Of a stretch of DNA of 26,026 nt, positions 20,789 through 21,244 are shown piece after piece; within the stretch, counting starts at the first letter, position 1, and each line of letters begins with the position of its first letter. This stretch comes from a virus. The notes beneath the pieces were generated by a model. The model ran no database searches. It was not told the origin of the DNA and saw only the letters and a list, made by a program, of their open reading frames with translations. The translations under genes and the position numbers were made by a program. Location: positions 1 through 26,026 of IMG/VR virus record IMGVR_UViG_3300035704_000156; one strand, given 5' to 3'.

Positions 20789-21244
20789 CTACCTCCCTCC
20801 GAGGTATCGTCGTTGCTGCATTAGAATCCAGCCGAGTAAGTTGTGCCCGTTACTGCATTTGCCGCAATAGCAGACACCCCATGTGTTGTCATGCCAGGTG
20901 TTGCCCTCGATCAGTGCTGCGGATCCAGTGCCCAGCAGCCAACCGGCAAGATCGCTCCTGGGCGAGAACTTGGCTGCTTGGACTCTGGCCATGGCGTCAT
21001 ACCGGCGCCACTCACTCCACCCGTCTATTAAATTCACCGCGCGGCCAAGGCGCTTGGCCTCAGCTGAAGTAGCTGCCGCTGCGATCAGGCGACGCATATT
21101 CATATCGTTTGTTTTCTCGGCATGGAAAGCATGCTCAGCCGAGGGGTAGGCGATTTGGTCGAGAAGCACCGGCGTCTGATAGAAAGAAGACAGCCAGTTG
21201 TAAGCTCCGCGGAATGAAGTAATAGAGCGGGGTACTGCTATCAT
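20789..21244 (-). CDS. NADAR-domain protein (YbiA/RibX-like)
   Basis: The 151-aa protein matches the NADAR fold: FRGAYNWLSSFYQTPVLLDQ (about residues 11-30), the helix with YPSAEHAFHAEKT (about 33-45), and the C-terminal ALIEGNTWHDNTWGVC (about 109-124), carrying conserved Glu, Asp and Trp. NADAR proteins are glycosidases; some remove ADP-ribose from guanine in DNA, reversing DarT-type toxins, and others act on riboflavin precursors. In a phage the anti-defence role is attractive but inferred. Start overlaps the CDF stop as ATGA. A CYCGKC motif adds an unusual zinc-like site. Confidence 0.87.
   Translation of the reverse strand: MIAVPRSITSFRGAYNWLSSFYQTPVLLDQIAYPSAEHAFHAEKTNDMNMRRLIAAAATSAEAKRLGRAVNLIDGWSEWRRYDAMARVQAAKFSPRSDLAGWLLGTGSAALIEGNTWHDNTWGVCYCGKCSNGHNLLGWILMQQRRYLGGR

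What the first reader, a model, noticed from the sequence alone, without database searches (positions are those of the whole stretch)
20789..21244. Phage NADAR protein, possible counter to ADP-ribosylation defence
Seen: NADAR motifs including YPSAEHAFHAEKT and IEGNTWHDNTWG. Known: NADAR enzymes can remove ADP-ribose from guanine in DNA, reversing DarT2-type toxins. Inference: anti-defence role against host DarTG or a related system. The added CYCGKC segment near the end is not something I recall as typical.
Basis: partly seen in the sequence, partly recalled or inferred. Interest (0 to 1): 0.7.

Follow-up and report, generated by a model that had tools for sequence, protein, structure and literature searches.

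The report
Phage NADAR enzyme with probable zinc loop
This phage gene encodes a complete, intact enzyme of the NADAR family, which strips ADP-ribose from guanine bases and may help the phage survive bacterial toxins; its unusual cysteine cluster is not a one-off but marks a large group of phage NADARs that probably bind a metal ion beside the active site.

Summary
ORF 20789-21244 (-), 151 aa, is a NADAR protein (Pfam E 9e-22). Its AlphaFold2 model (pLDDT 96.5) matches E. coli YbiA (Z 17.8) and ADP-ribose-bound Phytophthora NADAR (Z 16.6).

Published NADARs reverse guanine ADP-ribosylation (DarT1), not DarT2's thymine mark, and orphan phage NADARs countering DarTG1 are already published. No ADP-ribosyltransferase was recognised nearby; the host looks actinobacterial, not shown to be mycobacterial. 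The target stays an inference.

The CYCGKC segment is the main new point. In a scan for W-x-D-x2-W-G-x-C-x-C with the residue before Asp left free, it was His in 81 of 82 proteins and Cys in one. Over 146 CxC-type NADARs the third ligand is Cys (125) or His (19). Such Cys/His swapping points to a zinc site (H118, C125, C127, C130) beside the catalytic D119/W122. I found no description of it in the papers I could search and no solved structure containing it. Metal binding is inferred; geometry could not be measured.

The parts
20789..21244 (-). CDS, NADAR protein, 151 aa
21252..21257 (-). Shine-Dalgarno AGGAGG, 7 nt before the ATG; the start codon overlaps the upstream CDF gene's stop (ATGA)
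21134..21136 (-). E37 codon (Phytophthora E43, contacts the distal ribose)
21113..21115 (-). K44 codon (Phytophthora K50)
20906..20908 (-). E113 codon (Phytophthora E125; glutamate that defines the YbiA subfamily)
20888..20890 (-). D119 codon (Phytophthora D130)
20879..20881 (-). W122 codon (Phytophthora W133)
20891..20893 (-). H118 codon, proposed metal ligand 1
   Evidence: His or Cys in every CxC-type NADAR sampled
20855..20872 (-). CYCGKC (C125, C127, C130), proposed metal ligands 2-4, in the loop after the catalytic WG
21241..22035 (-). upstream overlapping gene: cation diffusion facilitator (zinc-transporter-like), 264 aa
19757..20785 (-). downstream gene: PHROG 6247 'DNA topoisomerase' family, 342 aa

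Best explanation
The gene encodes a stand-alone, catalytically complete NADAR ADP-ribosyl (N-glycosidic) hydrolase of the YbiA type, in a tightly packed gene row of an actinobacteriophage. Most likely it removes ADP-ribose from guanine bases in nucleic acid, undoing host guanine-specific ADP-ribosyltransferase defences (DarT1-like or other guanine ARTs). H118, C125, C127 and C130 probably bind a structural Zn ion that pins the loop following the catalytic D119-x-x-W122 next to the ADP-ribose pocket. Shown here by computation: fold, active-site residues, the co-occurring His/Cys set. Inferred: metal binding, substrate, and the counter-defence role.
For: Fold: AF2 model pLDDT 96.5, pTM 0.89; VIA Z 17.8 to YbiA 2b3w and 16.6 to ADP-ribose-bound 8bau, 7.9 to DarT1-linked 8bat. 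Catalysis: the residues that contact ADP-ribose in 8bau as reported in PMC11543638 (E43, K50, R79, W89, R93, E125, D130, W133) map to E37, K44, R68, W76, R81, E113, D119, W122, all identical. Published activity: all tested NADARs, including YbiA and T4 phage NADAR, remove ADPr from guanosine in DNA and RNA. Metal site: a scan of viral contigs for W-x-D-x2-W-G-x-C-x-C with x free gave His 81, Cys 1, other 0. Over 232 unique domains, 146 of 146 with CxC have His/Cys at 118, and 144 of 146 have a third Cys or His 2-5 residues on; of 21 lacking the third Cys, 19 have His there against 21% background. One protein even swaps H118 for Cys (L214, WCDVCWGICYCSKH).
Against: No wet data for this protein. 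T4 phage NADAR, active in vitro, failed to protect against DarT1 in cells (PMC11125620), so activity need not mean anti-DarT function. DarT (PF14487) was found in only 2 of 54 genomes of the Nonomuraea genus, one related host group. No toxin, ART or defence gene recognised beside it. CxC-type homologues also sit in bacterial chromosomes, including some mycobacterial proteasome operons, which suggests roles other than counter-defence. The NADAR tree is poorly resolved, so independent origins of the His/CxC pairing could not be counted (3 supported pairs).
Confidence: 0.5

Rival explanations
1. It acts on small ADP-ribose derivatives (cyclic ADPr-type immune signals, or breakdown products of NAD), not on modified nucleic acid.
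For: The survey PMC9503650 argues that phage Macro, NADAR, SLOG and Nudix proteins mainly counter low-molecular-weight ADPr signals. Among neighbours of related NADARs, single genes of NAD synthase, NAPRTase, SLOG-family and Macro type occur.
Against: None of those neighbours was recognised in this window; direct biochemistry so far is on guanosine-ADPr.
Confidence: 0.25
2. It is a YbiA-like metabolic enzyme cleaving toxic riboflavin-pathway intermediates, or another housekeeping N-glycosidase, carried as an auxiliary metabolic gene.
For: Nearest named NCBIfam model is TIGR02464, riboflavin intermediates N-glycosidase (E 6.7e-19); best structural match is YbiA.
Against: Score is below that model's curated cut-off (68.7 against 73.7). 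In the Nonomuraea genus 46 of 54 genomes carry some NADAR match, but only five score at the CxC-type level, so the CxC type looks accessory rather than core.
Confidence: 0.12
3. The cysteines are not a metal site but redox-active thiols or an inherited insertion without function.
For: Three cysteines in a short loop could be redox-active; the tree cannot exclude shared ancestry as the reason for co-occurrence.
Against: Redox thiols would not explain the obligatory His 118 nor Cys/His swapping at two of the four positions (19 of 21 at the third Cys; one at 118).
Confidence: 0.15
4. It is the antitoxin of a phage-borne toxin-antitoxin pair.
For: NADARs are antitoxins in DarT1-NADAR and YarT-YbiA pairs. 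One nearby gene (23246-24295) has no recognisable family.
Against: Neighbours on both sides are a cation transporter and a topoisomerase-family protein, not ARTs.
Confidence: 0.06

Closest known systems
E. coli YbiA (PDB 2b3w)
   Same: Fold over 145 residues (Z 17.8, rmsd 2.2), the E113 glutamate, single-domain size
   Different: YbiA lacks the His/CxC/C set; about 30% identity
Phytophthora nicotianae NADAR (PDB 8bau)
   Same: Fold (Z 16.6) and all eight ADP-ribose-contacting residues
   Different: No CxCxxC; has a His at the 118 position but WGIG follows
DarT1-linked NADAR antitoxins (E. coli C7; G. lovleyi 8bat)
   Same: Superfamily, conserved catalytic E and K
   Different: Weaker structural match (Z 7.9); catalytic Asp in place of the YbiA-type Glu; no partner toxin here
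T4 phage NADAR gp30.3 (Pfam Phage_30_3) and orphan phage NADARs reported to neutralise DarTG1 (Johannesman et al. 2025)
   Same: Phage-borne stand-alone NADAR
   Different: Only a sub-threshold match to Phage_30_3 (E 0.088); the 2025 paper was not held, so residues could not be compared
CxC-type NADARs of other phages and genomes (Rhodococcus phage Grayson, Gordonia phage Sixama, Arthrobacter phage Atuin, Aeromonas phage LAh_6; Nonomuraea, Tsukamurella, Mycobacterium genomes)
   Same: WHDxxWGxCxCx2-5[C/H] with full catalytic set
   Different: At most about 51% identity; ligand set varies (HCCC, HCCH, CCCH)

Membership tests
NADAR superfamily (PF08719) | Profile match above the curated cut-off | tested here: met
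   78.5 bits against 35.1
NADAR superfamily (PF08719) | NADAR fold | tested here: met
   Z 17.8 and 16.6 to solved NADARs
NADAR superfamily (PF08719) | ADP-ribose-binding and catalytic residues | tested here: met
   eight of eight identical to 8bau
NADAR superfamily (PF08719) | Hydrolysis of guanosine-ADPr | not testable with these tools
   needs an enzyme assay
YbiA subfamily | Catalytic Glu in the last strand (not Asp or His) | tested here: met
   E113 aligns with Phytophthora E125; definition from PMC11543638 and PMC11125620
Riboflavin-intermediate N-glycosidase equivalog TIGR02464 | Score above the curated cut-off | tested here: not met
   68.7 against 73.7 bits
DarTG1 (DarT1-NADAR) antitoxin | Encoded next to a DarT1 ART gene | tested here: not met
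   neighbours are a CDF transporter and a topoisomerase-family gene
DarTG1 (DarT1-NADAR) antitoxin | Catalytic Asp in place of the YbiA-type Glu | tested here: not met
   Glu 113
Phage anti-DarT factor (works like) | Protects phage or cells from DarT1 | not testable with these tools
   needs co-expression and plaque assays
CxC-type (putative Zn) NADAR subgroup, defined here | H/C before the catalytic Asp plus CxCx2-5[C/H] after WG | tested here: met
   H118, C125, C127, C130
CxC-type (putative Zn) NADAR subgroup, defined here | Bound metal | not testable with these tools
   no solved structure of the subgroup; model coordinates not available

The most novel reading that the evidence does not exclude
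A large, undescribed subgroup of NADAR enzymes, common in phages and sporadic in bacterial chromosomes, carries a structural zinc site joined to the active-site loop, and that site gives them a substrate specificity different from YbiA, T4 gp30.3 and the DarT1-linked antitoxins.
Probability: 0.3. Interest if true: 0.55.

Novelty: new variant of a known kind. Interest (0 to 1): 0.38.

Why it matters
NADAR substrate specificity is an open question: proteins with the same catalytic residues and in-vitro activity differ in whether they protect cells from DarT1 (PMC11125620). A conserved metal-binding loop beside the active site, frequent in phage NADARs and absent from the solved ones, is a concrete, testable candidate for part of that specificity, and it flags a class whose structure has not been solved.

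Tried and rejected
Counting independent gains of CxC on a tree: alignment too short (121 columns, 18 of 203 branches starred), only 3 usable pairs. Measuring ligand distances in the model: no coordinates are laid in the Python box. Looking for a partner ART or toxin in the window: none recognised. PADLOC match PDC-M42C (E 1.3e-10) was not taken as evidence of a defence system; NCBIfam 'NADAR family anti-phage protein' NF053876 is far below its cut-off (21 against 240 bits). Literature searches for NADAR with zinc or cysteine motifs, and for NADAR with the mycobacterial proteasome, returned nothing relevant. The key phage paper (Nat Commun 16:1598) is not held.

Full report
What is there. The ORF at 20789-21244 (-) is 151 codons plus stop, ATG-started, with AGGAGG seven bases before the start and the ATG overlapping the stop of the upstream gene (ATGA); three bases separate its stop from the next start codon. 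It is therefore an intact gene inside a tight row: cation diffusion facilitator (21241-22035), NADAR, topoisomerase-family protein (19757-20785). The record is an IMG/VR virus record of 26,026 bases. Portal (PHROG 104) and terminase (PHROG 9) are present; portal relatives are almost all actinobacteriophages, best Streptomyces phage Samy at 41%. The host genus is not determined; nothing specifically says Mycobacterium.

Family. Pfam NADAR matches at E 8.9e-22, above cut-off; PHROG 1017 at 1.5e-36; 440 phage records have a tblastn match, all below 60% identity. An AlphaFold2 model built on 70 sequences reached pLDDT 96.5 and pTM 0.89. Against solved structures its top matches are E. coli YbiA (Z 17.8, rmsd 2.2 over 145 residues), Phytophthora NADAR with ADP-ribose (Z 16.6) and, much weaker, the Geobacter NADAR of the DarT1-linked kind (Z 7.9).

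Active site. PMC11543638 lists the Phytophthora residues touching ADP-ribose (E43, K50, R79, W89, R93, E125, D130, W133). Mapped through the phmmer alignment (the chain is numbered two ahead of the paper) they fall on E37, K44, R68, W76, R81, E113, D119 and W122, all identical. E113 places it in the YbiA subfamily, defined by Glu at that place; DarT1-linked NADARs have Asp. It does not reach the cut-off of the riboflavin N-glycosidase equivalog.

The cysteine segment. CYCGKC follows directly after the catalytic W122-G123-V124. In 85 viral NADARs, 39 of 40 with WHD carried CxCx2-4C and none of 45 with WGD or WND did. Because that set was partly selected on the motif, I scanned viral contigs for W-x-D-x2-W-G-x-C-x-C leaving the residue before Asp free. 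Of 82 parsed unique proteins, 81 had His and one had Cys. In the final set of 232 unique domains (including sets chosen with His in the search pattern, so the His share is inflated there), all 146 CxC proteins have His or Cys at that position; the third ligand is Cys in 125 and His in 19, and two lack one in range, of which one has a Cys slightly further on and one is a broken gene. Where the third Cys is missing, His takes its place in 19 of 21, against a background of 21% (p about 2e-11; still 13 of 15 after strict redundancy reduction). His/Cys interchange at two of four positions is what a zinc site shows and what redox thiols or chance would not. The mycobacterial members read H-...-C-x-C-x2-H (for example WHDQTWGSCTCDQH). 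I conclude that H118, C125, C127 and C130 very likely bind a metal, probably Zn. The tree is too poorly resolved to count independent origins.

Distribution. In the Nonomuraea genus 46 of 54 genomes have a NADAR match but only five score at the CxC-type level. In a sample of the genus of M. shimoidei 6 of 198 genomes have a NADAR at all, five of them CxC type.

Function. All NADARs tested remove ADP-ribose from guanosine, in DNA and RNA, and none from thymidine or phosphate ends (PMC11125620, PMC11833690). Phage NADARs neutralising DarTG1 are published (title cited in PMC12548467; paper not held), while T4 phage NADAR was active but did not protect cells from DarT1. A rival view holds that phage NADARs mainly destroy small ADPr signals (PMC9503650). 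Nothing in this window decides between them.

Verdict. A real, intact, catalytically complete phage NADAR: a member of a known enzyme family.

Noticed in passing
L264:3096-8859, L253, L283, L288, L289: In some Mycobacterium genomes (M. shimoidei and others) a CxC-type NADAR gene sits inside the Pup-proteasome operon, directly after prcA; in M. shimoidei pafA follows it directly. No paper on it was found.
   Followed up: partly
window 21241-22035 (-): A cation diffusion facilitator of the zinc-transporter kind overlaps the NADAR start by ATGA. A zinc exporter coupled to a probable zinc-binding NADAR may be coincidence; the pairing was not seen in the other loci fetched.
   Followed up: partly
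window 24286-25725 (-): SufS-like class V PLP enzyme (cysteine desulfurase-like; also hits SspA and DndA models) in a phage; it overlaps by 10 nt a 349-aa gene (23246-24295) with no family and no phage relative.
   Followed up: partly
window 14397-15023 (-): Class F sortase-like protein in a phage genome (NCBIfam E 8e-41, under the curated cut-off).
   Followed up: no
window 22347-23201 (-): HNH/AP2 homing-endonuclease-like gene inside the row, a likely mobile intruder.
   Followed up: no
window 10150-13246 (-): Cluster of nucleotide-sugar epimerase, SAM methyltransferase-like and two glycosyltransferase-like genes.
   Followed up: no
L273:5806 and L278:4880: L273 holds a second, canonical NADAR just downstream of a WHD one; L278 (Clostridiales CCNA10) holds a CxC NADAR that looks broken by a frame shift.
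   Followed up: no
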